Source: Panulirus ornatus (taxonomy: Eukaryota > Arthropoda > Malacostraca > Decapoda > Palinuridae). From it: a stretch of 64,000 bases of DNA. The stretch is from NCBI RefSeq assembly GCF_036320965.1, contig NC_092279.1, forward strand, positions 21,882,929 through 21,946,928, given 5' to 3'. This document shows positions 8,818 through 51,910 of the stretch, one piece after another (position 1 is the first letter of the stretch; every line of letters starts with the position of its first letter). Position numbers and translations under genes: made by a program. The notes beneath the pieces are model-generated. The model saw only the letters and a list, made by a program, of their open reading frames with translations. It ran no database searches and had not been told where the DNA came from.

Positions 8818-9019
8818 ATGGCGGTGGCTACTGAGGCTTTGTCCCCCTTCCCACCCCAACCAACCCCACAGATTCCCTGCGCCGCCCCAACCCTCCGTTG
8901 GTATGCCGCCACCACTATTCGCCTGCTTGCGTGGGTTTCATTCCTCTTGGTATGGTTCTGCTGCCTACACCACGCAGAGGCACAGAAATGCATCAAGCTA
9001 GCAGAAAGCAATCTCCCTC
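8818..9019 (+). CDS. VKR: VKR coding exon 1: start and signal peptide
   Basis: Codes for residues 1-67 plus one base. A Pro-rich N-terminal stretch of about 32 residues precedes a hydrophobic core ([15 protein letters not shown]) and a likely signal-peptidase site after HHAEA. This is a long n-region for a signal peptide. The donor is ctc|gtgagt at 9020, phase 1. The reading frame stays open past the donor, so the exon end is chosen from the donor and from phase match with exon 2. Confidence 0.85.
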
Positions 9020-12000
9020 GTGAGTCACTCATGTCATATAGTCACTGCAAGGCCGTATATTTCTTTCTATTGCTCATCTTTGGAATTTTGTTCCCTCTCA
9101 TGTCTTTCTAACATTCAGAACCTTTGTCATTCTTAAAAAGCAAGTGTTTTCACTTCAAAACTGGTAGATTACCTTTCTCTTTCTTTTACTTTCATTTTTC
9201 ACTTGCTCCTTTTACATTTTTGTTTTTGAAAGGCCTGGCCAAGATAAGAAAATCTGTCTTGATAGGAGCCTTTGACCTTTTTATTCCCCCTTTTTGGCCT
9301 TTTATTGTATTTTTGTATCTTTTGCTCCATTTTTTTTTAGACCTTAAGTGAGAATGAGTTTTGCTTGTCTCTTCAGTGAATGATATCTGACAGTATTAAT
9401 ATTCTATGTATAAAGTATTTCAGGTATTTTTTATGGTGACTGGGTATTTTTACTTTCAAGCTAACCATTTTTAATATAGTTTTAGCCATTGTACAATACA
9501 GACAAGTGGAATTCTGATAAATATGTCTTCTTCACACAGGGGTTTAACACAGACTTGACTTTAATGTGAAAACTCCACAAACAGATTGTTAAGCTGACTA
9601 TTCAGTGATGGTGTACTAGAGCAGTAGTTTCCATTTTATTGGTCCTTAAGTTTTGTAAATCTTCATTTACTAAGAGAGTTTTATGTTTATCAATAGGTAG
9701 GGTTTTCATTGAAATATTACTTTATTTTATGAATTCTTTGTTAATCAAAGCAAACTGCCAAAATGTCTTTTTAAGAAGTTTTTTTCTTACAGTGCCTCCA
9801 CCAAAGTATGTGTATGACAAGTGGCAACAGCGTCAGCTAGCTCTCACATTGGATACCTCCCAGAGGCTCTCTCACCAGCTGGCCACTGCTGTTGTTAAGA
9901 TACTTTTTGAGGCTAGTGTCATAACTTTATTGTTCAAGTACATGTCCTGATTCTTTCTCCTAAAGCCTAGATTGTATCCTGTATGAGGAATACCCATGAA
10001 TAGGAATATACTGTGGATGTATTTGATGGTGTAGTAGTCTCTTTGGTGTTTTATGGATGCGAGGTGTGAGCCTTAGACAAAAATGTAAATAAGAGCGTAG
10101 GTGTTGGAAATTAAGTGTTTGAGGATTATATGTGGTGAGAGGAGAGTTCACCAAATAAGAAATGATAGGGATAAGAGAGAGGTGTGATAGTTGGAGAAGT
10201 ATGTATAAGGAAGGTCAAGAGGGTATGCTGAAATGGTTTGGACATTTTGGGAGGATTACTAAGTGGTTATACTTATAAGAAGTGGTTGGAACAGAGTAAT
10301 TAGGACACTAAGAAAGAGATGGAAGGTTGGAGTGAGGAATGATTTGATTATTTAGGGGCTAACAAATTATACGCATTTATAACACTTACCACTACAAATT
10401 TTGGACAAGAGAAAGAATCCCTAATCACCCTAAACTACCCTTCACTTAGCTGGTCATCCATCCTGTCAAAATCAAATAGAGCATAACTGCAAACCACTTA
10501 GAACACTCACCAGCTGCCTAGCCCCTACAAGGCAGCACCCACAGATTTTAACAGAGGCACAATGAAACAAATACTTCCAATACAATTTCAGTTCATTATG
10601 GGCAGAACTCAATTCGTTACAACAGTACTAAACCTTTCCCTCCCAAATCACTCCATCTCCAAACACCAGGCCCCAAGTAGAAATAGATGTCTCACCCCTG
10701 CATCATGCCTCTTCAACCAATACCTGATGGATCCCTCTCTTCCCCTGCAAAAAGACATTGATAAAATACACACAGAAATGATTCACTCAGCAGGTATTAA
10801 ACATCCACCTTTTCCTGCCTAGTATGGAAATTCACTCCACCAGATTTATACCAATGTGAAACCACACTTCCCAGGCATGTGTGATATACAATTTTTTGTA
10901 TGTGTTCTGGACACCACCAAACTCTCCAACATAGTGATACTGATTCAGCATATCACAAGACCCCTCATGTCCAAGATGAAAGTTCCATACTAAAGACACT
11001 GAACACTTACTCCTCAGTTGAACTGCACTCACCTCCTACAGACATACGCACAACATCCCCATACACCATGAAATGTGATCCCACCACATGGACATAGCTT
11101 GCTTTCTGTGCATTGCAGGAGTCCCATAAAAGGGGATTCTGGAGCAGGAAAGTAAGGAGTAATTAGATAGATATTAATAAATCCATGTAGAGTAGGAAAT
11201 TATTTTCGTGGTGCAAGTTACTATATATTTGTTCTCAGAATTTTTCTTGTTTTTGATGTTAAGGATGTGACCATAGTTTTGACATATGCAGTATGCCATT
11301 TTATTATTGCGAACAGTAGGGCATAAATGGCAGCTGATTTTTTATATTTTGATGTTATAAAAAAAAATTTCCACAGGAGGGCTTGGGCTACCAGAATGTA
11401 ACTATCAACCACTATGAGGAGGACGCCTTTAACTTAACTGAAGCACTGGAACGGCTTACTTCACCTAGCAGGTACACTGATGTACATGGGAAGAAAAGAT
11501 AACAGGAGACCTGATGGTCCATAACAAGGTTGTCTGTAAGATATCTAAATCTCATGGTAGAAACAATCTAGGAAAGCAGAAGGCTTTCCACCCACCCCAC
11601 CCACACCCCTGCCTCTCCCTCTAGCTCAGCTGTTGGAAGGAGAAAATAAAAAAGATATCAGAATTTATCAGGAAAAAATAAAAAAGATATTAATCAGAAT
11701 TTATCAGAATTCTCAGTATGTAGAGCAGTTTGGCTTAATTTGGATGTGAATTGACTGAGTTGATACAACTTTTGCTGTTATTGCAGTTTTGGGTTACATA
11801 TTCTAACATTCATATCTAGCCTGGATATTACTTGCAAGACAGACTGATTAAAAGTAAGGCAGAATAGTATAGATGTCATGATAATAATACTCTTATGGTG
11901 TTTGCAGTGATAATTTTGCTGAATCAGGAAAGGGCTTATGGCTATACATGATCTCAGTGCACTCTAGAATCTCCTGACAAAATATTGAGAAGATAGAGGT

Positions 12001-15000
12001 TTGAAATTTTGTAAGACTATTGTGAAAGCAGAGTTTGAATGAGTTGGCCAGAGGGAGTCTTTAGTGAAGGGTAATATGTCCATATCTTCATAAGGTGAAA
12101 GACAGGAGATATCAATTCCTTACAGGTAGGAAGGGGTACAACATATTTTGATTGTTTTAGAAATTGGTTAAATATAGTTTTAGAAATTTGTAAAATATAT
12201 GGCCCTGTAACTTAATTGCTGAGTTGAGTCAAAAGGTATGGTTTAATATTTTTAGATAAATGACACTGTGCAGACACATGACGGGTTTGCTTGTTCTAAG
12301 GAACTTGTGTTTTCCCACATGCCTGTATATGGGTCATCAGCAGTCAGTGTGTTAATTCTCTAACTTCTTTACAGAAATAATATGAGCTTTGGCACTTAAT
12401 GTATCAAATTTAACTCACTCGGCATATACAGTGTAAAAAGCCTTGTCTGTTCCCTGATGTATTTTCAGAGGCAATGTCACCTCCTTAGAAAGGAAAAATA
12501 CAGTGCCCAGAATACAAATTCCCAAAATGAAATTGTAGCCAGGAAGAGTAAAGAAAGAACAAACTTCCCCAGAGATAGCCAAACTACACTGAGGTGGGTT
12601 GCTGGTGCTTATGCAATCAGCAATCAGATGTATGATGATTTCACCCTGAGTGTCATATGCTTGTATCCACAATCAACCATAGCCTTGTATCACCTTTGTG
12701 AGTATATGAGAGGCAGACACAGTTTTTGTGGACACTGAAGATTACTCATGTAAGATTTTTTTCCCATATTGAACCTGTGTGGGCAAATTAGGTAGAAAGT
12801 GTTTCAAAAGACAGGCCCCGAGAATGCATTGCTGGATTTGTGGAAGTATTGCCTCTACAGCCCTTGCTGGGTTTGTGGTAATATGGCACCAGCAAGCCTT
12901 GGTGGGTTTGTGGAAGTATGGGGATCACTTCTCCTTTTGAATACATCAGAATAAGAATTAAAGCATTAGTAGAAGAAGCTTCCACCATTTTCCTTCATAT
13001 GCTGAGTTGGTTGAATTTGATAAAATAAGTGCCAGGGCTCATATTATTACTGTACAGAAGTTAGAGAATTAACACATTGTCTGCTGATAACCCATATACA
13101 GTGCAGAACACCTCTGTCGGTTGAGAGCAAGTACAGAGATTTCTTGGCAAATGCATGGATTATATTTCTGGAAGAAACCATTGTTGGCAAAACTGTGGTT
13201 GGTGATATATTATCACTATACAGTGGTACACCTCTGTCGGTTGAGATTAAGTACAGAGGTCTCTTGGCAAACACAGGGGTCATGTTTCTGGAAGAATCCA
13301 TTGGCAAAACTGTGGTTGGTGATATATGGCCTAGGCTTATGGAAATAGGGGTTAGGCAGGAGTGACCCATGAGAAGCATATCTTAATTCCTGTGATGAAC
13401 ATCTGACAATGAGAAATCAGTATGTTATACGACAAAGATATGTTTATTATATTGAAGTATAAAGAAATGATTCATAAACTGTACAGAAGAGTAATGGTAG
13501 ATATAATGCCGCATAGAATGATGGTAGTATACCACTCCTGATGCTCTACATATGGCCTCTTTACTCACACAAAGCTACCAACTGCTGTGCCACTCAAAAG
13601 GCTTGCCTCATTTTCCTTTAGGGTTCACACTGTTGACTCACTAACAGCAGAATGCCTCCCAACAGACACCTCACTTTCACCATTTGCAAGTTGGTCAAAT
13701 AAGTCCACTTTGTGCTCTAAAGGCATCACATTTCTTGCCTTCCTTGGGGTAGCACAGCTTACATCACAAGCTTTATACTTTGAGGCTATATCCAGTGGCA
13801 TAAAGCAACAAACATGTTTAAATTATCATAAGTTTCTTATGCATTAAGATCAGTTATGGAGTTCCTTAGCAACAGAACTGGTGACAATGCTTGAATGACA
13901 TTGTTATCTCACTCTTATGCATCACTGTATGAATCTTTATGCCGCCATTGTGCTCTATCTTGCCAATCTTGGCTAGAGGTAGCCTGCAGCCACCTAGATA
14001 CTGGGCAGAAGAAAATAGCTCAGATACTCCTGTTGTGTTGGTAAAAGATAATAGATTATCTTAATTATGTCATATATGATCTGTGGCTTTTAAAAGTCCT
14101 GGGTACAGTAAGTAGGAAAGTAGTGAGTCAGGAAACAGTTATTGGCAGCACAGACTTTTCCACATCCATTACCCATATTATTGCCACTAGGGTGGTCAGT
14201 AACCATCAAAATGCCGAATATGAAAATATGAAATAAGTAATCGAACATCATATGACATTGGCTGGCAGGGTCAGAACCCTAACTTATATTCATCTGGGAA
14301 GCTCACTACATATGTAAGAAAATTTTTACTATACAGTATTAATAGTTATATGTCACCTGTTTCAGAAAAAATATCTCTTTTGAATAGTAAGGCAAAAAAT
14401 TTATGTATTTTGATTCATTGATAATTGCTGCATAGGAACTACACTTACTATTAGCATAACTTAATGGTTTAAAATTTGACTATAATTTCAACCTTACTTT
14501 TTTACTTTTCTGAGTTGCATTTGATCTCATGCAAAGATTCTGCATATTCATTATAAGAGAGTATAGGCTGCAGGTAACTGAAAGCATAAATGCTTTAAGC
14601 AGTACCAGAGATTCAAAAAGTAGCATCATCTTGGATTATTGACTTTGATACTTGTAGATTATCCCACCTAATACCTTTTACTCAGAGCAGGTGAATAATT
14701 TTGAGTGGTAAGAAATAAGTATTCCTCTTGCTGAGCTTAAAACTTTTTTCGAATAATGGCAGGGATCCCATCATCATCCTTTTGTGGGAGCCATGTAATT
14801 TATTACTGTATAAAGTTACAAGAGAATATATGGTTTTAGAGTAACACAGAGAGACCTTTATGTATCTATAGTGAATCATTTTTCTAAGTCCTGTAGTTTT
14901 ATGTGCCATCATTCCATATGGATATGTTCTTGGGAAGTCAGGTGTATTTTATGTAGATTCTTCATAATAGGAATGAAGCTGTTTAGAAGTTGGATGTTAT

Positions 15001-18000
15001 TAATTTCCTTGCCTATACTTACTGACTAGACATGCATAAAGATATGTTGATAATGTGTATTTGCTTTTTATAATGGAAATATGCTGAGAAATATTCCCAT
15101 ATGTTTACTGGCAGAAAGGACAATGGGAGCCGCATTCCAACTGCTATGATCAACCTGGAGGTGTGGCTACCACCCACTTTTACTGAGGAGGATAGTACCA
15201 CCAAAAGTGATTGTGGATCACATGCCTCAGGCAGCAGGTGAGATGAATCACATTGTGAGCTAACCTACTGGATGAGAACAGAGATGAGAGGTAAGGAGAT
15301 GAATATGAGAACAATTAAGGAAAATGTTTTAGAATTTCAGGGAAAAAATATCTGAGATTGGTAAAGGTAGAGAGGAATGCCAGACAAATTTCACACAGTG
15401 CAGAAAGATATGCTCTGAACATTTTTTATGAATTTTAGGTTAGAATAGAAAAAAATTTCATTTCATGAAGTGATGAGAATTTTATTACAAAAAATGTAAA
15501 ATATTCAAAGAAACAGTTTTTTATGGAGGTCAAAATAAAAATTCTGTGATTCTTGGAGCAAGCAATACTTGGATTTTGAGTTTTTTACTTTGGAAACATG
15601 TTTTGACAGATTGAAGTCAGAATTTTTTTCAGCCTTGAAAGTGTTTTTTGTTTACCTGATTTAAGCTTACTTTTAATTTCATTTTTTCTAGTACAGCAAA
15701 GTATCCAAAATTTCTAAATCTTTGATAATCTCAATCTTAGAAGCTATTTAAAGGCTAAATTTCTTTGATTTTACTCTTAGTAATGGACACAAACTCATGG
15801 GCAAACATTTTATTTCAAGCGGGGCATAGTACTTTTTCTTCAGTTGGATTGTTGATATATGGAATGAATTACAAATGGGCGTAGTTGAAAGGAGCAACAT
15901 TGATACAGTTAAGAAAGGGCTAAACAGTTACTTCACTAAGTCCACGACTTTTTATTTGTATACAATTTTACAGGTATTTCTTGTGTTTGCTTTTCAGCTC
16001 TAGTCATACTGATCTATATGTTTCTGATCTTTCTTACCATCACAGACAGCCTCTTTAGGACCAGTTGGTATGTTGCTGTTTGCTTTCCTTTGTAACTGAA
16101 TTCTGCTCATCTGCATCTCCAGTTGGAACCGACAGAAATGTTAAAATACACATTGATCAGAACCAAGATGTATTCAGACCATTGCAGTACAGTATAGCAT
16201 TAAAAAACAATATGGATTATTCATTATTTTTAATATGGCGAGATTTTAACAGTAATTAAAGTAATTATAATACAGCTCTGCATACAGTAGAGTACACCCC
16301 TTGTATACCAAGTCACTCCATTTCACTGTGTCACATACATTCCTTTCACTCTCCTGCATGGTTAGGTTCTGAGCACTCAAAATGTTTACAACTCCATCCT
16401 TACATCTCCAATTTGGTCTCCCCTTCTCCATGTTCCCTCCTCTTCTTACACACATATCTTCTTTGTCAGTTTCTCGCACTTTCACTCCATGAAAATGTTA
16501 TTGTTTTTTGCTGTTTTTCTCTTTTATTAGTAATTGATCAGAAGATGAAGCTTCTGCTCTACCACTACACTTGATGTGTATAGACATCCTGGCATCGAGT
16601 AAAAGATGATTCTCTGCTGCCTAATGTGGCCTGTGGATTGGACTTATGAGTGAAATGTATATGTATACCAGGATCTCATGTATATTAGAAACATTTATTG
16701 CTCTGTAACATGCTCTGTGTACTCTCCTCAGGTTTGGCTGGTATGTGTCTAACAACAGCTACACCCAGACAGAAATCATAACAGACCACTGGCGTTCCTT
16801 CCAGCGTCAAGGGGTGACAAAGCTATTTGCACTAACACCAGAAGAGGATGCTGAACTGCGGCAGAAGTTCACCAGGACAAATGATGGGTAAGTTCATATT
16901 GAAGTTCTATCCTGTTGTAATTCAAACAGTTTTCCAGGTATTTTGTCACAGTATTATTTTTAGTAGCCCCTGGAGAATGCCATATGTCAAGTTTAGAACT
17001 TGCATAATCTCTGAATGTTGGGAACCATATGATAACTTACTTAATAGGTGCTGTTAGTCATCATATAAATTGAGTTGAGCTTATTTCAGTTCTCCATTAT
17101 TATGTTGACAGTTGAATGGGTGTTGAACATCACCTTGGTCATTGTAGGTGCTTTTTGCTGATATTACCTCTGTCTGGAAGCAATTCTGAATTGTTTGTAT
17201 GTAAATATATGTGAATTTGTTAGGGTATGTATGTATTTAAAAAAGGTTACCATACATTGTGATAAGTGTTATGAAGCTCACTCCCCCTGCTGTACTTCTG
17301 CCTCTTCCCAGTTCTTCCACCTTCCCTCCACCTCCTTCAGTGGATGGTCCACACATTTAATGCCATACCATAGCCACATATGTTAGATCATTTGTTTCAT
17401 ATTTAGTAAAAAGTGACATCATTGAATTTGCTAGTCCTCCACCTTCATTTCTTACATCTCTTCACCTCTGTTAAGCTATTTATTCATTAGATTTAGTGTT
17501 GTTAATGGCCTTGTGAAATATGTTAGCTCATTTGTTTGTATATTGATCTTTACTTTTACACATATTTCTCATACCTTAGGAAAGGAAACAAAATTTCATT
17601 TATTTTTGAAGATAATGACTGCAAAATTACAATTTTGCCATTGTTTAAGAGTTAATTAAGTAAACTGATTCAGTTGTAATTAAAGTGAAAAGTTAAGGGA
17701 TGAGACTCTACAAATTTTTTACTGTTTACTAAATGATGTCAGGTGTAAGGCTGCAAATTTTTCAGACTTTAGAATAAAGGTTATGAATGAGATGTAAGAA
17801 AAAGTCTGATAGGTCGTTTGTCATTGTAGCATTTGTTGTGTGGAATAAGGAAGGGGCTTACTTTTTAGTGTTATGAAATTTTTGGGTAGCAGTATTAGTA
17901 TTTATATATTGATTTATGGGGCTATGCCTATAATTCATAAGGGTGTTAGGAGGGAAGCATGGTTGACCACTATTCTCCCCTGGTCAGGACTTGTAAGTGT

Positions 18001-20435
18001 TCTGTTGTATTTTTCATTGTTCTTTACAGGTACTACTGTAATGCTGACTACTGCAATGAGGGCATCTACATTCCATTACACTGCAAGGGAGTAAACTATT
18101 GTGCTACACTTTTCGTCGGTGGCTTCAGTAAGTTTTGTCATTTTGTGTTCAACTGATTATTGTCAGTATAAATCTAACCATGAAGATAGGATGTTTGAGT
18201 ATATTTTTAAATGATATTAATGGTCCTGTTGCAGACACATATTCCAAGTTCTTGGTGGAGCAGGTGGTTAACCAGAAGTTGCTAGTTCGCATTGCCTGGA
18301 TAGGACCAAACCTCGACCCTCACTTCCTCTGCACCTTCAGGGGTTCTAAGCCCATGTTATTCTTTGACTGGTGGCCTAACTCACTCTCTAATTTAGATGA
18401 ATTTATGCCAGTCTCTTTCCCCTCATGCATAAGTTTCCATGGGAAGAACTCTTACTTATGTAATTATGAACTTCATACTCTGAAGAAGTTCATTTGGTCT
18501 GAACTGCTGGACTCTGCTAAAGTTGCAGTTGAGGTAATTGATACAATACCATGATTTTTTTTAGCCTTTCAAAAGAAATATTAAAGTATGCTATTACTGA
18601 TATATTCCTTTCATATATTTTGTAAGCTCATTTCAAGAACCAATTAAAGAATTGTATTGAATGAGAACAATATCATTTTAGGCAGTCAAACGGTTTTATC
18701 TACGGGAGGAAGATTACCAGGAGCTATTGGATCTGTACACAGAGCGCACCACTAGCTGCAGTGGCAACTCTTCCACTGCTCTTCAGCCAGCCAATCAGAT
18801 TATGGAGGAAGTGGCCTGTGAATGGCTGCAGCGTACATACAGTGATGGGACAGTCGTATGGAATGATTGGCTGCCACACAACTACTATGCCAAGACTGTC
18901 CTATGGATTGCAGGAATATTCCCAATGAGCAATGGAAGAAATATTGGTTTTTCCAGTGATACTTTAGTTTTTGGTATGTTATGTAATCATGAAAAGCTTT
19001 TACTTGTCTGCTTATTTTTCAAGTCATGGGAATGGAAATAGATAGGTAGAACATTTAGTTTATGGTTTTTATTTTCAATGAAATTTATTGTTTCATCACC
19101 AGTACTGTACAGCTATTAACAGTTGTTTATTCTTTCAGCTGCTCGATTGGCATATGATAATATTAACAAAAACAAAGATATCTTGCAAGATTTTGATATC
19201 CAGGTGATGAATCAGAATGGTGGGTGTAAGAGTGAGGATGTGCTAACTGCCTTTATGCATTATGTTCGAAAGGACTCCAACGACCCTACTAGTCTTGCAT
19301 TTGAACAGATGATAGGAGTTCTTGGTTAGTAATTAGTATATTTCTGTAATCTTTTATTTTTTCAGCTAATTAGCTGTACACCACTGTTACATGTTTAGAT
19401 TTAAAAAAAGTTGCATTTAAGCCTCAGCACAAGTAAAGTCATACACACATGAAAAACCAAACTAATGATTAAACATATTAATTGTTAGGGATACAACATA
19501 CAGAGGAATTTTTAAGTATCCATTATCCAGCTGGATAGCCATATAGTTGAAAATTTAATTCTTAAGTAACTGTCATGATAAAGAAGGAATTAAAAAAGGA
19601 AGAATAAAAGGCCATAACCCATCACATATATTATTAAAATTTCATTAGTGCTGAATCATTGAATTGTTTTAAACTAGAATTTTTCTCCTGTTGCTTAACT
19701 CTTATAGGCCAAGTGATACAATATTTTGCTCACTGTATGGACAGTGTGATTCCCACTCAGAATTGAAAGATATTTCTATAAAAGTAAAAAGCATGTAAAA
19801 GAAGTGCATTAACATACATAACTTATATGGCTGTGGTGTAATGCTAAAATTAATACATATCTATCTTGGATGATGCAGTTGTAGGATGGCAGAGAGAGTG
19901 GAGAATTATTCATGAGCAAATTCAGTAGTGACAGTAGTAATTGTGAAAGAAATACCTGTTAGTGTAAAGGATATGTACAAATGAGGGAGTGAGCATGAAT
20001 TTCATGGCTGTGATACACTACTACAGTTAACGCATATTTTACTCAACAGAGATAGTGGAGGTAGAGAGGTGGTGTGTTGGTTGAGAATAGGTACAACTTA
20101 GGTGAGCCTTTTGATGCAAATTTCGTAAATGACACATCACTATTTACAGTTTCTGTATACATCGATAAAATGATAGATATCATTGAGGGAATTAGCATCA
20201 TGAGGCACATCTCCAGCTGTACCTCTCCTCATTCACCATAACACCATTTTATATCCACTACCTCTACTGGGTAATTTATGTGATAACTTTAGCCCAATAT
20301 TGCACCCATATAGATTTTGCTTACTTTCTTGTTTTTATGTATCTTTACATTTACAGGTATTTCTTTCATAATTAGTGATGTCACATTAATTCTCCCCCAC
20401 TAATCCTCCACCATCCCACCCCTACATCATCCAGG

Positions 20436-20472
<37 letters not shown>

Positions 20473-23400
20473 CTTTGTCGCTGTCTCCCGCGTTTGCGAG
20501 GTAGCGCAAGGAAACAGACGGAAGAAATGCCCCCCCCCCCCCCATACACATGTACATACACACGTCCACACACGCAAATATACATACCTACACAGCTTTC
20601 CATGGTTTACTTCAGACGCTTCACATGCCTTGCTTCAATCCACTGACAGCACGTCAACCCCTGTATACCACATGACTCCAATTCACTCTATTTCTTGCCC
20701 TCCTTTCACCCTCCTGCATGTTCAGGCCCCGATCACACAAAATCTTTTTCACTCCATCTTTCCACCTCCAATTTGGTCTCCCTCTTCTCCTCGTTCCCTC
20801 CACCTCCGACACATATATCCTCTTGGTCAATCTCTCCTCACTCATTCTCTCCATGTGCCCAAACCATTTCAAAACACCCTCTTCTGCTCTCTCAACCACG
20901 CTCTTTTTATTTCCACACATCTCTCTTACCCTTACGTTACTTACTCGATCAAACCACCTCACACCACACATTGTCCTCAAACATCTCATTTCCAGCACAT
21001 CCATCCTCCTGCGCACATCTCTATCCATAGCCCACGCCTCGCAACCATACAACATTGTTGGAACCACTATTCCCTCAAACATACCCATTTTTGCTTTCCG
21101 AGATAGTGTTCTCGACTTCCACACATTTTTCAAGGCTCCCAAAATTTTCGCCCCCTCCCCCACCCTATGATCCACTTCCGCTTCCATGGTTCCATCCGCT
21201 GACAGATCCACTCCCAGATATCTAAAACACTTCACTTCCTCCAGTTTTTCTCCATTCAAACTCACCTCCCAATTGACTTGACCCTCACCCCTACTGTACC
21301 TAATAACCTTGCTCTTATTCACATTTACTCTCAACTTTCTTCTTCCACACACTTTACCAAACTCAGTCACCAGCTTCTGCAGGAATTATATACCCTAAAT
21401 GAAACGTTGTCACTGTTTATGGTTTCTGTAGGTGTTATCAGACTCCACCTCTGCTAGGTAACATCATGAGTGAAAAGTCTTCTTTGGTGAGGCTGTATCA
21501 CTGGGTGAAGTCTTGTTAAAGACCTTCTCACTCCAAAGGAGTCTACATTTCCATGTTAATGGAAGTAGCACAGCTTTGTATTGTCAGAGCCTTTGGAAAG
21601 GTCATGGGTAACACAAGGACTCTTCCATAAAGGAGAATAGGGGAGGGAGAGATCTGTGGGAGATGGGTATGTGCCAGGGAATCTATGTGTGAAAGGGATC
21701 TTAGGAACAAAGCTTCCAGTTTGACCACCATAAGGGTAGCAGTAGAGGATGGATGGGACCTTGGCAGTAGGGATCCTCAGTGATCAGTGATAATCTCACA
21801 GGTAAAGGAATTAGCAAAGAAGGGTCAAGTAGGGTAAGTTAGGGACAACTTAGGCAGTATGAGCAGCAGATTAGCACAGCTACAGTCAACTTTCCGGTAA
21901 CTTTTAGGACCAAGACTGATAAGGTCCAGTGTGGGGAGGGTCAGAATAACACGGTGAACCTAGAACAGATGGAGAACCTCTCTCTCCCACTGTTGCATGC
22001 ACAGACATTAACAGTGATAACAAACACGCATACCGGCGGTATGAAAAAGGCAAATCCAGTCCAGAAATCAACTCCAAGGAAAATAAGTTTGATATACACA
22101 AATGCCCAGAGCATCATTATGAAAATATAGTAAACGATGAAGAAGTTATAAGAGTAGGAGACTTAAACAGTCCAAACATAAACTAGAACACGTTAACAAG
22201 TGACTAAGAGGGAATGAATAAATGAATGAATGGATGAATAGAAGAGAAGGACTGATTTTCCAAAAGAAGAAAGCATGTAAGAAATTCAAATCATTGGGAA
22301 CTGATGAAAATCACCAGGAATTAGTCAAAATCCAGAGAGAACGTAAGGTCATAAGACAGAGTAAACACGAGGAAGAAAAAAGAATTTCCTTGAAAGTTCA
22401 GAATAATTCTAAGGAATTCCTCAAACATATAAGACAAAGGAAGACAGTAAAAGAAGGAATTGTACCATTTTGAAATGAACGTGACACACTAACTACTGAT
22501 GACAAGGAAATGGCTATCATACTAAATTATTTCTTTAACTCCATATTAACAATTGAAGAAACATCTCGAATACCGCATCCAGTAAAACTGTTTCAAGGAT
22601 CTGATGAAGGAGAGTTGAAGGTTAGAGAAATAGAGACCTCTGAAGAGTATACTTAGATACCTGGACCAATTAAATCCTAAGAAATCCAATGGCCCAGATA
22701 ACTTAGCTCCAAGATTTTTAAGTGGTCGGGAGACAGCTGATATACCCCATAACAAAAATATTTGACAAATCTCTCTCGGATGGTCAGGTGCCAACTGACT
22801 GGAAAGGAACAAGTGTTACTCCTGTATATAAAAAAGGAGAAAAATAATGTGCCTTGAACTATTGCCCAATTAGCCTAAAGTCAGTTTTAGGTAAAATGAT
22901 GGAAAAAATAATACCAAATAAAGCTGTCACATTTCTAGATCACAAAATTATATCAGACAACCAGCACAGTTTCTGCAATAGAAGATCCTGCCTAACAAAT
23001 TTGCTGGAATTTTTTAATGTTATCAGAATTGGAGCAAAAAAAAAAAAAGTACTGTCTGATATATTAGATTTCCAAAAGGCTTTCAATAAAGTACCTCACA
23101 AGAGACTTACATAAACTCAAAACACACAGAGTCAGTGAAGAAATCTGTTCATGGATCAAAGACTGGCTTTCCAGAAGAAAGCAGTGTGTAGTATGCTCTG
23201 AGAAAAATGCCAGAAATAAACTGTATAACGACAGCAGTAACAGGGACGCTAGAAGGCTAATTTGTAGCAGCAGGGAGTTGATGATTGCTTAAAAAATTGC
23301 TGAGTGGAGTTACATTTTATTGTCCTGTTAGACTCTTTGACACAATACTGAGAAAACATAAAGACACTGAAATAGCCTGACAAGTGCTATATAGATGCCC

Positions 23401-26400
23401 TCCCAACTGTTTCATAAATACCTCCAATCCAGACATACACCCACCAGAAACCACACTCCATAGACATACACATGGCCAGTTTCCTGAGCTCTTAGAGCCC
23501 CATTTAGATATATAGATCTTTTACACCAATTTTTCATGTGTCACTGGTCCTGCATGGTAATGATGTTTCATTATTTCCAAAATTTACAATGAAACATTTT
23601 AAAAGTGCTTTGTGTGTTCTTATCTGATATATCATATATGAAGTACATTACTAATATCCTGTCTTTATAATTCCTTTGAACTACCCATTATGTTGCCTTG
23701 AATTCTCAGGTATTGTTAAAGTGCCCTTATGAGTTCATCACTCATAAGCTCCTACATGTTATTTTTCTTTCTAGCAAATTACATATGCATTTTATAATAT
23801 TCTTTTTTTTACTCAATATATGCTGTTATTTCACAGACATTTAAGAGCATGTGATTACATCTTTTTTGTATGGATGGTTATTTATCCCAAAATTTTCATT
23901 CATCAACCATCCAAAGATTTTGCTTTCTTTAGTTAGAGCTACCATTGTACTTTTAGTCAAGGATGCATTTTTCTGGCCTCCACTTCTTAACTATGGAGTT
24001 TCTGATGTTTCTTCCTTAATTTCTTTTTATATGCTATCCTTCTGACAATCAATTTCTTCGCATTGATTTTCTCGTCCTATTGATTGTATGCATAATTTTG
24101 TCACCAAGAAAAGAAAGATGATTTTAAGGATGCCTTTGTCAAAGAATTGAGAGGTGATTGTATTTAATGCTGTGTCTTAAAGGTTTGGAAGGTGAAAATT
24201 ACATTTAGCTGTTTTTTTCAGGTCCAGCATGTTCTGACACAGTGGAGCCTCTTGCCGGTGTAGCAAAGACTTTCAATACAGTGGTGTTGTCATATAGTGC
24301 TGAGGGAGCCATCTTCAATGATCATGAAAAGTATCCTTACTTTTTCAGGACCATCCCAGAGAACAAGATGTATGGGTAAGTAGAATTTAAACTTAGTCAT
24401 GTTCTCAAATAATCTGCTGTGATATATTAGTACCAGTGAAAATGTATAGCACTGGCTTGAATAAGAAAAAATGAATTGTTTGATATCTTATCCATCAGAT
24501 TTGTTTACCTGGAATTGTTCAAGTTGTTTGAATGGAAGCAGGTGGCAACACTGACAGAGGATTGTAACAAATACAGTGAGTACCTGACATTACTTCACAA
24601 TATGCTTCCCAAGAATATGAGCCTAGAAAACCGCAAATTCCCGAAGACAATGGACAGGAACATGACAGATGTAAGTATTGTCATTAAGCTAGAGGCAGCC
24701 TTGCTCTTATTTGTGTTACATAGTTTATCTGAAGACATTATGGTAATCCAAGTAGCTTGAAGTATTTTTGCATATTCTGATTTAAAAAAATGTTTGTCAG
24801 AGAACTTTACAATGCAAATCAAACTAAGAAAGTTGTTTACTTTGTAATCTCATTGTCCTTTTTCCATCATAGGTATTAGTTTTAGGGACTGAACTGTAGA
24901 GATTGAATAATCCATGTTCCTGCATGATGTAGGTGAAGGCTGATATTGTTGGGATGGGAACCTCTTCCCTATAAGAAAACATTTAGAGCTAAAAGATTAA
25001 TATTTGTGCTTGGGCCCAACACACACCTGGATTATCAAAAGAGGAAATACGGAAATCAGAAAATGATATGAACTTATGTATGTTACTATGTAGAAGCTGA
25101 GAAAATGATGCATAATAGTTAAAATGAAAGGATGGTAGACTTTCCGTTCTGACAGGGATGTTACTTTGATAATGTCTATTTCAGTAACAAAGTAAATGTT
25201 TTCACATTTCATGCGTAATGTGTCTTGGTGAGTCAACATTGTATACCACATACAAATACCCTTTTAATCATGGCAATTTCTCCTGCAGCATCTGCTGAAG
25301 CTGAAGGCAAAGAACCTTAGGATCATCATTGGTGACTTTTATGCAAGTACAGCACGAGAGGTGTTGTGTGAGGCTTACCACCAGAACATGACAGCCAAAT
25401 ACAACTATGTATGGTTCTTGCCAAGATGGTTTGCCAACAACTGGTACAACATAGAATACTATGCTGAAAAAGACAAGAAAAAGATCCCCTGTAATACTTC
25501 CATGATGCTAGAGGTGGGTTCACTTTTGTGTGGATTTACTCTTAAGACAGTGGCACTTGAGGAAGTACAGAGTATGAGTAGGTTATGTTTTTCAGAGAAA
25601 GTAGCTTCTGAAAAAAGGATATTTTTAAAAAATTTTATTGTGTGCAACTTCTCTGCTTTGTAGTATGAAAGGATTAGTTTGTCTATAAAGGTTTTTATCT
25701 GGTATTTGAAATTAGCTGAACAGTCTGATTCTGTCTGATTCTCTGAAGAAATTTCTTAATGAATTTTAGTTGAAGAGTGGGTTGCCTAGAAGACTTGCAT
25801 GAAGTATTGGGTTTGCCTGATTCTGTTGGTCTTTTAGAATTGAGTAGGAATTTGTTCCTGTGCCATTTTGTTTGAAATTGTTGATGATGAAGATTTACTT
25901 AGATCTATATTTTGCACTTAGATTTAGATTAAGTGGTATGCTACTACTGTTTTTATGTTGCCCATTTCTTTTATATGAGTTTGCACTTTGGCTGCTGTAT
26001 CATTTAAGGTAGAGTTTGTATAGATTGACTACTGTATCCTGTAAGGTAGAGTTTGTATATGATTGAAACTATATTAGTTATTGCTTTGTGCATGTAAGTA
26101 AATCTTATGGTATCTTTTTAAGATAAAAGAAGTCTTATACATGAAATTTGAAATTGCATAATAGTAGATTTCATATAGAATTAGGGATTCTCCGTGATTT
26201 TTAGTTTTCAGACACCTTCATCATGGTGAACTCGATGAAGATTAGACCTGTCATATTTAACATTCCAGTGTCTGTAACCTCCCATTAATTGGCTCTGCTC
26301 TTGACCAGCCACAAGGCTTAGATGTTATGGTAGAGCTATAGATATTTGCGGTGGTGAGCTTTGGCCTTTTTATGCTAAGTTGTATAATATCTGCTCAAAT

Positions 26401-29400
26401 TTGCCCTGAAATATGACATCAAAAGAGGTGAGTGAGCAGTCGAAATGTAGGCGACTCTGAAAATACAGTTTATACGTGTTTTTACCTTTGTGTATTAATA
26501 TAATGTACAAATTTATGTTGTGTTTCAGTATAAACACACCAGCAAAGAAATATTCAAGCAGTTTGTCTTGGGTGCATATTAAAGTTTAGTGAAGAAACTT
26601 TGATTTTCAAAATGACAAGGTTTAGGAAAATTGCACATTTTAGAAAGAATTGTTTTGCCTAAATATTTTCCTCTTATGATTGAATGTACATTGGGCTGCA
26701 TAAGCTCAGGAGTTTCAGAAAAATTGCATCAGTGCTTTAGTTTTACTGTATCTGTAAAAGTAATCTTTTTGTCAAATCTCAAAATGCCTGCATGAAAGAC
26801 ATTTGTTTTAAAACTATTGATTGCATTTACCCTTTTGATGGTGTGGGCATCAGTTTCCATCCTATGTATCATTGTGCTGTTGGTATCAGTCTACACATAT
26901 AATTTGCCACTACAAGTTCACTGCACATTTTAAGCTCTGTTTGCTGGCCATAGGTGGCATCCCAAGTAAAGGATGAGTCATTGGAGTTGGCTAGAGGCCT
27001 CAGTAGCCCACGAGTGAACACAGTGGATGGTCACATGCCTGTTCTTAGGATTTACTGCCAACAGTGCCTACTACTACAACCCTACCATGCACATTATACT
27101 TATACCTGTGATTGACCAATGCAGCTGATAATTTGATATTGAAAAAAAAAATGCTTTGCTCGATTATAAGAAAAATGAAAGTTTGTGTTTTGCATACTTT
27201 ATCATGTTCTGTACTTGAAAAATATATAAATCTCTTTTTGATACTTAGATTATCTGGTTAATAGTGTGTTTCTCCTAAATTAGGAATGGTTAAGTCTTAT
27301 AAGAAAATTTTTTTTTTTTATATTTTTCTTCATAAGTAAGTAAAACAAGAATGATTTTAATGTGTTTAGCACATCTAGGGAAGGTCAGTAAAATCAGTTT
27401 ATCACCAAAAAAATGAAAGCAAATATCCAACTTGAATTTCATTTGATACAACTGACTTAAAGTTTCAGAAATTTAGCACAAAATGTACATATTTCACCAT
27501 TATGTTTTTCATTTTGCCTCACTAAAACATACAAACCTTTAAATTAAGTCTTTATAATGACCAGATCCTTAAGTTCAGATTATTGGTCATTGTGTGTGCA
27601 GCATCCACTCCAAACATGTGCTGAAGTTTTGTTTTAAGCGATAGATTTTTTCGAAGTTTTGTTTTATTATTTTTTTCTTTTATTAAAACTATTTATATTG
27701 CAGGCTGTGGATCGACACATGTCTTTAGGATATGCCTACTATGCTCCTGATGATGTTGTGTACCATGAGGGCAAGACTGTGAAACAGTGGAGAGATGAAT
27801 ATAATCAGAGGTGAGGTTTACTACCATTTGTAAGCAGTCAAAAAGTGTACAATGATATTGTCATTATGAAAGAAAATTAGTGATGTGATTGAGTTCTTAA
27901 GAACTGTGCTGATTATTTTCCACATTTCCATCAGAGATTGAACTGACAAGAATTTATGATTATCATTGTATAATGATACCCCTTCAGGTTGTTTGTAATA
28001 ATATGTATTGGCCTTGATTAAGCTTCAGGGGTCTGGAATTTATATTTACAGATCTGTGTCTTATTCATGAATTGATATTTACAAATATTCTTTTGTCCAT
28101 ACATTAAAAACATACTTGTACATGAATTGTAGCTTCGGGAGATGATTACAAGCATAATACTTTTTGTTTTCCTCGTGTTGAATATGTTCAGTAGAAGAAT
28201 ATAGTGCATCTTTTCTCCTATGACCATTGTGTGACTTACGACCAAATTTTCATTGTAAAAATGTATTGATGCAGAATGTAATACTGACTCAAGAAAATTT
28301 CCTTTTGTTATTATGTGGCAGAGAAGGCATATTGGTATATACTCCAGGAGCCCCAGGCCTGATTATTAGTCCTTGGTTTAGCCTTGCATCATGATTAAGA
28401 AAGAGACATTCTGTATCTGCAGAAAATCTATAATAGAGTTGACTGTGTAGTCTTGTGGAAGGTGATGCCAGTAAATAGGGTAAACAAAATGTTATTGCAG
28501 TGAAGAGATCATATTGGAAAATAAGACATATGTGCAAGTAGGAAGGGAGGAGGGTGAATGGTTCTTAGGGAAAGTAGGTCTGCATCATAGATGTGTGATA
28601 TTATTTAATTTGTTTTCATATGAAATAGAGAAAGGTAAATGCAGTTGTCTTAGAGTAAAAGGAAAGTTTATGAGCCTTGGGAAGTAAAAAAACTTGCTTT
28701 TTGCAAATGACAGTTTTCATGGCATACTCAAAACAGAAACACCAGAAGCTGGTGATGTTTTGGAGAGTGTGGAAAGGGGAAGGTGACAGGGAATTAGAAC
28801 AAAACTTAAATTAATGATGTGCAGTAAGAGGATGAGCTAGGATAGTTCAAGAGTAAGTCTAAATGGACAGGATCTGGGGAAAGTGGATTGCTTTAGCTAC
28901 CTGAAAATTGATGTAGCAGCTAATGGAAGCATAGGGGCTTAAGTGAGGTATAGAGTAGAAGGAGGCTAAGGTCCTGATGCATTTAGTAGTGTGTAGAAGG
29001 AGAGGTCATTGTTTGTTTGGCCAGAGATGGGTGTGTGTGAAGGTAGAGTAGTCCCAACATTGTTGTATGGGTATGCTTCAGGCTCTCACTGCAAAAGAAT
29101 GGAGGAGGGTGAACTTGTTGGAAATGAAACATTTAAGAATGATATGTGGTGTGAGGTTGATCATGCAAGAAATGACAGTGTAAGAGCATGATATAGTAGC
29201 AGCACATTATGATTGAGAGAGCTGAGTAGAATAGGTTGAAATGGTTCAGACATACTGAGAGATGAGTGAAGGAAAACTGACAAGGATAGTCTAACTACTT
29301 TACTTACAAGTAGTTACGATGAGATTTTATCAGAATAGTAGGGCTGTCACGCAGTACTAACTGCACTCCTTGTTTAATGAGTGATACTGGTCTTTTTTTT

Positions 29401-32400
29401 TTTTTCTGCCACTTGCATTGCATAATTGTCTTTTGTGGGTTCATCTGGGATTGATTTCAACCACATTTGAAGTTTTCTTTTAATTGTGTCTGTGGTTGCT
29501 CCAGCTATCTTTCTTATATCTCCAGGCAGAAAGGTAAACAGTTTAGAAATAAAAAGAATTAAGGCAAGCTGTAAACATTCTGAGAATCAGTAGACCACAA
29601 GTATAATGTCATCAGTTTACTTTCAATGTTTGTTAGAATAACCACATAACCAGTTGACAGGAAGTAAGGTTGCCGTCATATACAGATTGATCCATAAAGT
29701 TACTGTCTCACAGATTTATTAACTTTCTCCTCAAATCATGGAAATCAACTTAATCAGACACTGGGAAAATCATATTTATAGCTTTAGTCACTGTCCTTTA
29801 TAAGTAAACATTTCTGTGTTTACTTATTTCAGCTTGGAAAAAGAACCTGCAGAGTATGCTGGTTACACATATGATGCTGTCTGGACATATGCTTTTGCCC
29901 TGGATAAGTTGCTTAAGGAAGATCGTACTCATGTTGCTAACCTGCACAGCGATAGGACCATCAAGTAAGTTATATTTCTGTTTCATTCATGTTGATGGCA
30001 AACGTAGTTTTGTATACTGTTGATTTTATACAAATAGGCTCTTATCTGTTATAAAATGATGATTTATGGTGTATATATGGAGAAAAAGCTTTTATACAAG
30101 GAGTTTACTAATCTGTTCTGTGATTATTCGCATTTTAGATAAATCTGATGAAGTCTAGTATATCAGTGAATATACAGTTTAGAAATAGGAGTGGAAAATG
30201 GAGCCACGCAAGGATTTGTCTTCTGGGGCTAAAGGCTGGGGTGACTGTATGTGAGGTTATAACCAAAGTGAGAAGAAGGGAGAGATATGTGCTTGGTATT
30301 CCAGCTTGTTAATCAGCCTCCCATGCAGTAGTGTATCAAATGCTTTGTGGCTGTCAAGAAATAAATCTCTGGAGCCTTCCCTTTTGTCTAAAACAGAACT
30401 TGCTCACTTATAGAAATCTAAGTGGTTTGTTACACAGACCTTTTTCTAAAACTGTGTAACCTCACTCATTTTTTTTTCTTTTTGTAGAAAGTCATCCATT
30501 TGCTTGCTGATTATCTTTTCCAATGCCTGTACAGACCACACTCATCATGGAGGTTGGTATGGAGTTCAAGTAGATGCGTATGACATTTACCCTTTTCCAC
30601 TGTCTTGGCCCTTTGCCAGTGCTTTCACTGGATGCCTCCTCATTTATCAATATATGTTTGAGTATACTCAATTCCTGCCTCAGAAGTATCTTTTGTTATT
30701 AATAGGCTCCTGCAGCACTCAGGATACTGGGACCACAAGTCATACTTGAAGTGTTGTGATATTGTGTGTGTATGTTATGTACTGAAAGTGCAGGGCACTT
30801 GAATATCAAGGGCTCAGGGTATTCTTTGTGGTAGTTGCACCTTGGGCATGGGAGATGGGGGGGTCTTACGATACGGTGAATCATGTGTGATGATTGACAA
30901 CCAGATTGTAAGCAGGAGAGTGTGACATGAATTTGTCTGGGGAGTTTGATTTCTTATGGGATTATGTCTGGTGGGTTGTATGAGTATATATAGATGTATA
31001 TACTTATAGGCAGTGTATGTAAAGTTCTACAGTTTGGAATGATTTTTTAATTCCTTTCTTTGTGGGATTCCATGAACTTCTTTTCCCTGTTTCAGACGGT
31101 TTGTAGAACTCTTAGGAGAAACTAACTTCAGCGGTGTGTCAGGACACATCAACTTTCGGGATGGCCCCTCCCGAAAAACCACGATTAACATCATGCAGTT
31201 TATAGTTAGTGATGACCGGGAGAATGGAAGCCATAAATATGAAACTATTGGAACATTCACACCAACAAGCTCTGAAGGAGGCATGTAAGTTCAGAAATGT
31301 AATTTTTTTTTTTCTATCCTTTAGAGTGCCTTATACCTAAAATTTTGTTCTATAGGTTCTGTGGACCTTATATTTTATGTATAAAACTTGTTACATACCA
31401 GCTTAGAGAATCAGATTCTCAGGAAATACTTAGAAAAACATGTATTTGTATGTAGCATTTATGGAAGTGGAGAAGGCATATAGTAGGGTTGATAGAGATG
31501 CTTTGCGAAAGGTCTTAAGAGTATATGATGTGGGAGGCAAGTTGCTAGAAGCAGTGAGAAGTTTTTACCAATGATGTAAGGCATTTGTACGAGTAGGAAG
31601 AGAGGAGAGTGATTCATTCCCAGTGAAGGTCGGTCTGCATCAGGGGTGTGATGTCCCCATGATTGTTTGATTTATTTATGGATGGGGTGGTTAGGGAGGT
31701 AAATGGGAGAGTTTTGAAGAGAGGGACGAGTTTATAGTATGTTGGTGATGAGAGGGCTTGGGAAGTGAGTCAGTTGTTGTTTGCCAATGATACAGCTCTA
31801 GTGGCTGATTCAAGACCAAGGTTATTATTAGGTTCATTAGGGTTGAGGGACAAGTTGATTGGGATATAAGTCTGAATGGAGAAAAATTGGAGAAAGTGAA
31901 GTGTTTTAGATATCTGGGAGTGAGCTTAGCAGCGAATGGAACCATAGAAGCGGAAGTGAGTCACAGAGTGGGGGAGGGGGCGAAGGTTTTGGGACCAATG
32001 AAGAATGTGTGGAAGAAGAGAATGTATCTCGGAGAGCAAAAATGGGTATGTTTGAAGGAATAGTAGTTCCAACAGTGTTATATGGTTGTGAGGCATGGCT
32101 ATAGATAGAGTTGTATGGAGGAGGGTGGATTTGTTGGAATTTATATGTTTGAGGACAGTATATAGTTAGATCGAGTAAGTAGTGAAAGGGTAAGAGAGAT
32201 GTGTGGAAATAAAAAGAGTGTGGTTGAGAGAGCAGAAGAGGGTGTGTTGAATTGATTTAGACAGATGGAAGGAACAAGGAGAAGTAGGAGACCAAATTGG
32301 AGATGGAAGGATGGAATATAAAGAATTTTGAGCAATCAGGGCAAGAACTTATAGGAGGGTGAGAGGAGTGTAAGGAGTAGAGTGAATTGGAACGATGTGG

Positions 32401-37280: not shown

Positions 37281-37315
<35 letters not shown>

Positions 37316-38567
37316 TCGCTGTCTCCCGCGTTTGCGAGGTAGCGCAAGGAAACAGACGAAAGAAATGGCCCAACCCACCCCCATACACATGCCTTGATTC
37401 AATCCACTGACAGCACGTCAACCCCGGTATACCACATCGCTCCAATTCACTCTATTCTTTGCCCTCCTTTCACCCTCCTGCATGTTCAGGCCCCGATCAC
37501 ACAAAATCTTTTTCACTCCATCTTTCCACCTCCAATTTGGTCTCCCTCTTCTCCTCGTTCCCTCCACCTCCGACACATATATCCTCTTGGTCAATCTTTC
37601 CTCACTCATTCTCTCCATGTGACCAAACCATTTCAAAACACCCTCTTCTGCTCTCTCAACCACGCTCTTTTTATTTCCACAAATCTCTCTTACCCTTACG
37701 TTACTTACTCGATCAAACCACCTCACACCACACATTGTCCTCAAACATCTCATTTCCAGCACATCCATCCTCCTGCGCACAACTCTATCCATAGTCCACG
37801 CCTCGCAACCATACAACATTGTTGGAACCACTATTCCTTCAAACATACCCATTTTTGCTTTCCGAGATAATGTTCTCAACTTCCACACATTCTTCAAGGC
37901 TCCCAGAATTTTCGCCCCCTCCCCCACCCTATGATCCACTTCCGCTTCCATGGTTCCATCCGCTGCCAGATCCACTCCCAGATATCTAAAACACTTCACT
38001 TCCTCCAGTTTTTCTCCATTCAAACTCACCTCCCAATTGAATTGACCCTCAACCCTACTGTACCTAATAACCTTGCTCTTATTCACATTTACTCTTAACT
38101 TTCTTCTTTCACACACTTTACCAAACTCAGTCACCAGCAGTTTTAAACTCCATATGGGAAGAGAGTTTTACACATGTTGCCCCATCTTAACTTTGTATAC
38201 GTCTATCAGTGTTATTACTCTTATTTGTAAACACACACACACACACACATTCTAAACTAGGTACCCAAATATCAACCAGCCCTAAAGGGAGGATGAATAG
38301 CAAGATTGGATGTGGGCTGACTGCCAAGCCCAGGATTCAGACCCAAGCAGGCTGATTTGTGTGTTGTGTTTTAGGTGATAGTGTGATGGGTATTGTGTGT
38401 TTGGTTTAGGATGAGTTGACATTTAGAGTGGGAGAGTTATAGTGACTGGTATGGTGAAAGAAATAGAGGAGGTAGTGAAAGGGAATAAGATTAACTACAT
38501 ATATTGTAAAAGCTCCAAACAACATTTAAAATTCATCTATCCTTCTCATATTGTCAGAACTTCCCAG

Positions 38568-38609
<42 letters not shown>

Positions 38610-51888: not shown

Positions 51889-51910
51889 ATATAAATAAAT
51901 AAATATATAT

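What the first reader, a model, noticed from the sequence alone, without database searches (positions are those of the whole stretch)
9793..18960. Bacterial betaine-binding-protein-like module at the front of a Venus kinase receptor
Residues about 57-430 (exons 2-8) carry, in the correct order, several signatures of the OpuAC/ProX glycine-betaine substrate-binding family: helix KILFE then [13 protein letters not shown] (W156), GWYV (W183), [17 protein letters not shown] (W310/W311) and a final ACEWLQ...VWNDWLP. A separate complete GABA-B-like Venus flytrap follows. The receptor would then have two periplasmic-binding-protein folds in series, possibly sensing a betaine or quaternary-amine osmolyte plus a second ligand. 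Glycine betaine is a main osmolyte of marine crustaceans, so the idea is attractive. I do not know whether this fusion is already described.
Basis: partly seen in the sequence, partly recalled or inferred. Interest (0 to 1): 0.9.

Follow-up and report, generated by a model that had tools for sequence, protein, structure and literature searches.

The report
Hidden second flytrap in lobster receptor
A spiny-lobster receptor of the Venus kinase family carries, in front of its known ligand trap, a second domain related to bacterial osmolyte-binding proteins; the same domain is in insect, arachnid, millipede, crustacean and snail relatives, I found no published description of it in an open-access library, and what it binds is unknown.

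Summary
A 22-exon Venus kinase receptor gene (8818-48111, +) encodes 1370 aa; a contig from elsewhere, evidently spliced, encodes the same protein except 2 residues. Residues ~57-436 (exons 2-8) precede a complete GABA-B-like flytrap. The window sequence alone shows no OpuAC hit even at E 10, but the family does: seven relatives pass Pfam's OpuAC cut-off; a profile of 11 modules finds TmoX (4xz6) at 1.5e-9 and DmpX (7yle) at 1.9e-5; comparison with five bacterial binding proteins gives 99.3%, E 9e-21, 283 columns. The reversed profile finds none at E<0.001. It is no decapod novelty: 119 of the 120 listed receptors found with the flytrap as query have it, wholly or partly, and so does a gastropod. 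The founding insect paper reports no third domain. Betaine sensing is not established: TmoX Trp102 and Trp222 are kept (106 and 89 of 110), Trp55 and Glu131 are not. Best reading: an ancient tandem-flytrap receptor kinase whose outer trap has an unknown, probably re-specified ligand.

The parts
8818..9019 (+). exon 1: start Met, hydrophobic signal-like segment (about residues 35-50), first residues of the module (C58)
   Evidence: matches P0001 except L8S and F42Y
9793..9911 (+). exon 2 (aa 68-107), GC donor; first strand and helix of the OpuAC/TmoX-like module, R92 and H95
11377..11471 (+). exon 3 (aa 108-139): EGLGY...
15115..15237 (+). exon 4 (aa 139-180): NLEVW, W156 = TmoX W102
16732..16887 (+). 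exon 5 (aa 180-232): R180, W183, W200 and start of the Cys-rich insertion
18030..18127 (+). exon 6 (aa 232-265): insertion cysteines C235, C240, C250 and C256
18235..18533 (+). exon 7 (aa 265-364): FFDWWPN (W310 = TmoX W222, F308 = TmoX F220), C329/C340 and W352 with counterparts in TmoX
18682..18973 (+). exon 8 (aa 365-462): C-terminal helices of the module (ACEWLQ...VWNDWLP) and first strand of the following flytrap
19139..31284 (+). exons 9-15: GABA-B-like Venus flytrap (ANF_receptor, aa 462-822), Ser528 equivalent to the arginine-site Ser505 of Anopheles VKR
33412..33609 (+). exon 16: single transmembrane helix (about aa 888-912)
   Evidence: read from sequence
33735..48111 (+). exons 17-22: insulin-receptor-like tyrosine kinase (aa 946-1214) and tail, stop at 48111

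Best explanation
The gene is a Venus kinase receptor (VKR1) of a spiny lobster, almost surely Panulirus ornatus. Its first ~380 extracellular residues are a divergent substrate-binding-protein domain of the OpuAC/ProX/TmoX kind, with a ~45-residue cysteine-rich insertion, joined directly to the known arginine-type flytrap, one membrane helix and an insulin-receptor-like kinase. Shown: homology of the module to those bacterial proteins, and its presence in nearly all arthropod VKRs found and in a gastropod, in step with the rest of the receptor. Inferred: it folds as a two-lobed trap, and works as a membrane-distal second sensor that, on closing around its ligand, biases the flytrap dimer below it and so the kinase (co-sensor or allosteric gate). 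The ligand is unknown; part of the aromatic cage is kept but the polar partner is changed and a conserved arginine aligns with TmoX Trp55, so the specificity has probably been rebuilt. I put the identity of the module at about 0.95 and the co-sensor role at about 0.45; the figure below is for the two together, loosely.
For: Pfam OpuAC above cut-off 21.2 in P0097 25.1, P0100 28.6, P0102 25.6, P0110 34.3, P0119 27.2 bits, P0121 24.8, P0038 23.5, each time just before the flytrap. Module profile to PDB: 4xz6 1.5e-9, 7yle 1.9e-5. hhalign 99.3%, 9e-21, 283 columns; 110 modules vs 79 TmoX 97.3%, 1.7e-11, 156 columns, local. At E<0.001 the reversed profile hit 0 of 1050 bacterial ORFs (9 at E<=10, best 0.53), the forward one 104. 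Chelicerate, hexapod and decapod-VKR2 modules each find the bacterial proteins on their own (104, 92, 67 hits). Module and remainder distances correlate, r 0.77, 0 of 999 permutations as high. Conserved pocket-equivalent and neighbouring aromatics: W156 106, W183 109, W310 89 of 110. The paralogue VKR2 in the same genome also has it.
Against: No predicted or solved structure (not accepted). Window sequence alone has no OpuAC hit; decapod VKR1 profiles stay above E 0.001. The strong part of the match is the second half: the first half scores only 5.0 and 9.1 bits, the local match covers module residues 197-373, the matches positions 223-373; the first half rests and the global alignment. Module evolves faster than the rest (mean distance 0.66 vs 0.45). 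TmoX W55, E131 and F106 are not kept, W177 is mostly Phe. Nothing here tests ligand binding or coupling to the kinase; arginine activation needs the flytrap serine.
Confidence: 0.55

Rival explanations
1. The module is a binding-protein fold that no longer binds a small molecule and instead docks a peptide hormone (neuroparsin/OEH in insects), with the flytrap below reading arginine.
For: [quoted passage not shown] a second extracellular domain gives another site. Pocket changes fit loss of the old ligand.
Against: Chelicerates and a gastropod have the module, while neuroparsins are described as known only in arthropods and were not found in Limulus, Strigamia, Stegodyphus or molluscs (PMC4888303). 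Pocket Trp stay conserved in most of the 110 modules.
Confidence: 0.22
2. The module is a ligand-dead structural spacer or dimer-forming domain.
For: Fast divergence; cage residue replaced by Arg/Lys/His in some spiders, a cockroach and termites; five cysteines conserved in 107-110 and two in 95-100 of 110 point to a rigid fold.
Against: W156, W183 and R92 stay conserved in 106, 109 and 99 of 110, and W156 and W183 rank 7th and 4th of 390 columns.
Confidence: 0.2
3. One reading: the module is a betaine or quaternary-amine sensor, here reporting osmolytes.
For: Homology to TMAO- and DMSP-binding proteins; two cage Trp and aromatics at F308 and F270 in the window protein; an Arg near the pocket could hold a betaine carboxylate (inference).
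Against: Glu131 position Glu in 0 of 110, Trp55 position Trp in 0 of 110; same module in terrestrial arthropods; W310 replaced by a basic residue in 14 of 110.
Confidence: 0.12
4. Artefact: exons 2-8 belong to another transcript, or the resemblance to OpuAC is chance.
For: Weak single-sequence signal.
Against: Same architecture in a spliced contig from elsewhere and in 119 of 120 listed VKRs; reversed-profile control empty at E<0.001.
Confidence: 0.02

Closest known systems
Venus kinase receptors (VKR; Ahier 2009, Vanderstraete 2013)
   Same: Flytrap (ANF_receptor), single transmembrane helix and insulin-receptor-like kinase; this gene is one of them
   Different: [quoted passage not shown] this work adds the N-terminal OpuAC/TmoX-like module
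TmoX (4xz6) and DmpX (7yle), OpuAC/ProX-type substrate-binding proteins of marine bacteria
   Same: Collinear homology over ~280 columns; LEVW, R..W, FNWTPN/FFDWWPN, the C329/C340 pair, W352 and the C-terminal AxxWL...W.W (TmoX)
   Different: Covalently part of a receptor kinase; ~45-residue Cys-rich insertion; Glu131 and Trp55 lost; no transporter partner in the same polypeptide
Putative fungal glutamate-type GPCRs with OpuAC domains (PMC3251606, passages)
   Same: Eukaryotic receptors reported to use an OpuAC-type domain in their N-terminus
   Different: Seven-helix receptors, not kinases; no homology to VKR tested
BvgS-type sensor kinases (PMC4352136, listing and start of abstract only)
   Same: Two flytraps in tandem in front of a kinase: works-like comparison only
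   Different: Bacterial histidine kinases; no homology tested

Membership tests
OpuAC / PF04069 substrate-binding domain | Window protein reaches Pfam's gathering score (21.2 bits) | tested here: not met
   No PF04069 match up to E 10
OpuAC / PF04069 substrate-binding domain | Orthologous module in relatives reaches the gathering score | tested here: met
   Seven proteins at 23.5-34.3 bits. By number: OpuAC in 10 of 36 VKRs at E<=1 (a set I chose, with five already flagged ones in it) and in 3 of 37 others at E<=0.01
OpuAC / PF04069 substrate-binding domain | Full-length profile homology to characterised binding proteins | tested here: met
   strong in the second half, first half mainly by profile-profile alignment
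OpuAC / PF04069 substrate-binding domain | Two-lobed class II binding-protein fold | not testable with these tools
   Structure prediction not accepted
OpuAC / PF04069 substrate-binding domain | Aromatic cage with polar partner (TmoX W55, W102, W177, W222, E131) | tested here: inconclusive
   W102 and W222 kept (106 and 89 of 110), W177 mostly Phe (85), W55 and E131 not kept; no structure to place the side chains
ABC-transporter substrate-binding protein | Separate protein working with a membrane permease and ATPase | tested here: not met
   Module is fused in frame to flytrap and kinase in one spliced contig
Venus kinase receptor | ANF-type flytrap, one transmembrane helix, kinase with [27 protein letters not shown] | tested here: met
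   Pfam; motifs read in the translation
Venus kinase receptor | Flytrap serine for amino-acid binding | tested here: met
   PACS, Ser528, matched by eye with Ser505 of Anopheles VKR through the mutagenesis primer quoted in PMC6401105

The most novel reading that the evidence does not exclude
Venus kinase receptors are, as a family since before arthropods and molluscs parted, receptor tyrosine kinases with two flytraps in series: an outer, bacterial-osmolyte-binder-derived trap with a rebuilt (probably zwitterion-binding) pocket that gates an inner arginine-sensing GABA-B-like trap, so that the kinase reads two metabolites, or a metabolite plus a neurohormone.
Probability: 0.35. Interest if true: 0.82.

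Novelty: new variant of a known kind. Interest (0 to 1): 0.66.

Why it matters
VKRs are implicated in egg formation of Aedes mosquitoes and in reproduction of schistosomes, and how a flytrap receptor takes the neurohormone OEH is an open question in the field. A second, unrecognised ligand-trap-like domain in the insect VKRs found here gives a concrete alternative site, a deletion construct and a list of residues to test, and it means that ligand work that considers the flytrap alone looks at half of the extracellular part. It is also an animal case of a bacterial-osmolyte-binder-type domain built into a receptor kinase.

Tried and rejected
Searches with the window module alone against Pfam, PDB and NCBIfam gave nothing useful. 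A weak antitoxin TacA1 hit (E 0.017) lies in the C-terminal helices only, below its cut-off, and was set aside. Profiles of decapod or malacostracan VKR1 modules alone do not reach bacteria at E<0.001, so the claim rests on the family. I considered a decapod-specific fusion and dropped it. Which bacterial branch is nearest I cannot say (20.7-52 bits across TmoX, DmpX-like and others); no tree with bacteria was attempted. The first extraction of bacterial ORFs from L097-L102 picked wrong frames for L097-L099, and its low scores are void; redone. VKRs of cnidarians, echinoderms, annelids and flatworms did not turn up in the listed hits; 30 of 150 hits are not listed by the tool. Twelve partial modules of 122 were dropped before the residue counts, the one of Batillaria among them. 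Presence of the module in P0121-P0123 and in the 13 hits is by construction, as the module was the query; the less biased count is 119 of 120 from the flytrap query, of which P0105 and P0014 match only 62 and 77 profile positions and the miss P0111 is an 889-aa record. The pairing W55-R92 comes from profile-profile alignments only and is provisional.

Papers: named sections or passages were seen of PMC2680970 (section 17, passages), PMC3703292 (sections 5 part 1 and 8, passages), PMC4522560 (section 5, passages); passages only of PMC4026697, PMC4888303, PMC5601475, PMC6401105, PMC8918994, PMC10030565, PMC10087775, PMC3251606, PMC10445921. PMC4352136 only in a listing with the start of its abstract. 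Vogel 2015 (PMC4413300) is not held; its result is taken from the 2015 review. Novelty searches: OpuAC + tyrosine kinase + arthropod, 0 papers; OpuAC + receptor tyrosine kinase, 1, a plant-compound review by its title; venus kinase receptor + glycine betaine, 0; PF04069, kinase, Venus, any two, where the ten listed of 5,316 hold no PF04069; glycine betaine, venus flytrap, animal, receptor, OpuAC, any four, gave the fungal GPCR paper. All this is one open-access library. Automatic PF04069 tags already stand on six of these VKRs in the protein database.
Full report
What is in the window. The DNA is from a 2.65-Gb decapod genome; the window is contig C56:21882929-21946928, and C56 is 35,263,926 bases long, the same length as the longest contig listed for the Panulirus ornatus protein P0065, whose last exon matches this genome at 100%. 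On the + strand lies a complete Venus kinase receptor gene of 22 coding exons, 8818-48111, 1370 aa, all introns GT-AG except intron 2, which is GC-AG. P0001, from contigs of up to 6669 nt, is identical at 1368 of 1370 residues; since the gene spans 39 kb, I take those contigs as spliced, which confirms the exon joins, the GC donor included. Pfam finds the flytrap (ANF_receptor, 462-822, E 1.5e-48) and the tyrosine kinase (946 onward, E 1.6e-71) and nothing above a cut-off in residues 57-436.

The module. The module spans about residues 57-436, exons 2-8 plus the end of exon 1. Searching with it as query returned P0001 and twelve others at 44-75% identity; those that carry a name are malacostracan crustaceans. 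Searching with the flytrap instead returned 150 VKRs, 120 listed, among them insects, springtails, chelicerates, a millipede, a barnacle, an ostracod, a brine shrimp and malacostracans (groups assigned by me from the names). A module profile then hit 119 of these 120 at E<=1; with the three extra proteins, 122 of 123. Among them is a gastropod, Batillaria attramentaria (P0123, partial module, OpuAC 17.9 bits, below the cut-off of 21.2). So the module belongs to the VKR family at large and, unless gained twice, predates the split of arthropods and molluscs. Distances in the module and in the rest of the receptor go together across 110 proteins (Mantel r 0.77, 0 of 999 permutations as high), though the module diverges faster, 0.66 against 0.45. 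The second VKR gene of the same genome (C56:8195901-8378194, minus) has it too: matches to P0065 cover its residues 1-354 and 383-524 piece by piece.

Its kinship. In single chelicerate and myriapod VKRs Pfam's OpuAC model passes its cut-off: five, two more (one of them, P0038, without a source name), 23.5-34.3 bits against 21.2, each time over roughly the second half of the model and just before the flytrap. A profile of 11 modules searched against all PDB sequences gave 4xz6 first (E 1.5e-9), then 7yle (1.9e-5); then came, not significant, OpuAC of Lactococcus (3l6g 0.099, 7ahc 0.12) and a chance homeobox chain (0.16). 4XZ6 is TmoX, the TMAO-binding protein of Ruegeria pomeroyi (PMC8918994 and PMC10087775 passages); 7YLE is RnDmpX with DMSP (PMC10030565 passages). 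In those alignments the second half carries the score (33.4 and 15.5 bits), the first half little (5.0 and 9.1). I fetched the best 80 of 336 TmoX-like loci, of which 79 gave an ORF. Profile-profile comparison of 110 VKR modules with these 79 gave locally 97.3%, E 1.7e-11, over 156 columns of the second half, and globally 98.5%, E 1.7e-14, over 276 columns; the tool's own comparison of 11 modules with 5 bacterial proteins gave 99.3%, E 9e-21, over 283 columns from the first strand to the last helix. Controls: among 1050 ORFs from 106 bacterial loci the module profile hit 104 ORFs in 103 loci at E<0.001, the reversed profile none (nine at E<=10, best 0.53); the module profile does not recognise the VKR flytrap itself (-2.8 bits). 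The loci were chosen as binding-protein loci, so the control lies in the other ORFs and in the reversal. The kinship is found independently with chelicerate (104), hexapod (92) and decapod VKR2 (67 hits) profiles, but not with decapod VKR1 (0 at E<0.001, best 0.0036) or malacostracan VKR1 (best 0.0076) alone. The window's own lineage is thus a derived member, tied to the rest by a leave-one-out hit of 8.5e-97. In 200 genomes of the phylum of Ruegeria, 17 had a match to the module profile at E<=0.001, over its second half.

Anatomy. Against TmoX, the VKR module has an extra ~45 residues between the DHW helix and the CATLF strand, holding C235, C240 and C250, with C256 at its end; C250, C256 and C410 are invariant in 110 modules. 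The C329/C340 pair and W352 have counterparts in TmoX. TmoX binds TMAO with W55, W102, W177 and W222 as an aromatic box, E131 as hydrogen-bond partner, and F106 and F220 (the table seen prints E122). Equivalents by alignment: W102 is W156 (Trp in 106 of 110); W222 is W310 (89); F220 is F308 (Phe or Tyr 49, Leu 56); W177 is F270 (Phe 85, Trp 0); E131 is F181 (Phe 75, Glu 0); F106 is T160 (not conserved); W55 falls on R92 (Arg 99, Trp 0). R92, W156 and W310 occur together in 77 of 110. W310 is Arg, Lys or His in 14 of 110, among them spiders (P0048, P0052, P0056, P0066, P0095), a cockroach and termites (P0027, P0045, P0062), a planthopper (P0043) and a plant bug (P0118), and Tyr in 7. So the cleft seems to be a working but rebuilt site in most lineages, with different chemistry in some. 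This argues against one shared betaine-like ligand; it does not exclude a zwitterion, whose carboxylate an arginine could hold. That last step is inference, and so is the placing of these side chains in a cleft.

How it may work. From the papers: VKRs signal as dimers; L-arginine activates bee, Anopheles and schistosome VKR1 receptors, and with Ser505 of the Anopheles flytrap changed to Ala L-amino acids no longer did so (PMC5601475 and PMC6401105 passages; window Ser528); mosquito VKR binds and is activated by OEH, from which the review infers that a flytrap must be able to take large ligands (PMC4522560 section 5). The numbering and size of those constructs (Ser505 in Anopheles, DFG at 1031 in bee, 1277 aa in locust) leave room for the module, and the 1277-aa VKR of another Schistocerca has a 395-aa module (P0035), so the cloned receptors very likely contained it (inference). 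I propose that it is an outer sensor that gates the flytrap dimer, with a peptide-docking role as main rival. Shown: homology, distribution, conservation pattern. Inferred: fold, ligand binding, coupling.

Novelty. Ahier et al. [quoted passage not shown] Searches of the open-access library for OpuAC or PF04069 with tyrosine kinase or VKR terms found nothing relevant. Automatic PF04069 tags exist on six of these proteins in the sequence database used here, so the signal is visible to anyone who looks; the interpretation seems not to be in print in what I could search. OpuAC domains in receptors are reported for putative fungal glutamate-type GPCRs (PMC3251606 passages).

Limits. No structure could be predicted. 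Deeper animal lineages did not turn up in the listed hits. The search of the window's genome for further OpuAC genes did not complete (last tried).

Noticed in passing
window:9912-11376: Intron 2 has a GC-AG border (GAG|GCTAGT ... CACAG), confirmed by the protein P0001 from spliced contigs.
   Followed up: yes
G000:C56:8195901-8378194 (-): Second VKR gene of the same genome (VKR2, as P0065 of Panulirus ornatus), about 13.5 Mb away on the same contig, also with the N-terminal module.
   Followed up: partly
window:6857-8027, 20529-21385, 31777-32104, 37293-38167, 39556-41599, 44358-45893, 50734-52945: Several copies, on both strands and 67-99% alike over 300 bases or more, of a LINE-like element with reverse-transcriptase frames (RVT_1 in the two frames tested; repeats), lying in introns of and around the gene.
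   Followed up: partly
window:8795-8815: An upstream frame of six codons and a stop (ATG...TAG) ends two bases before the ATG of the receptor (read).
   Followed up: no
P0048, P0052, P0056, P0066, P0095, P0027, P0045, P0062, P0043, P0118 (module column of W310): The cage-equivalent Trp is Arg, Lys or His in several spiders, a cockroach, termites, a planthopper and a plant bug, a hint at ligand change or loss in these lineages.
   Followed up: partly
P0122, P0123: Gastropod-type VKRs with what looks like a shorter cysteine insertion in the module (P0122 has no source name but reads close to Batillaria P0123).
   Followed up: partly
window:53293-53368: Perfect AT dinucleotide repeat, 38 copies.
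   Followed up: no
window:44075-44179: Tandem pair of a 52-base unit, 96% matches.
   Followed up: no
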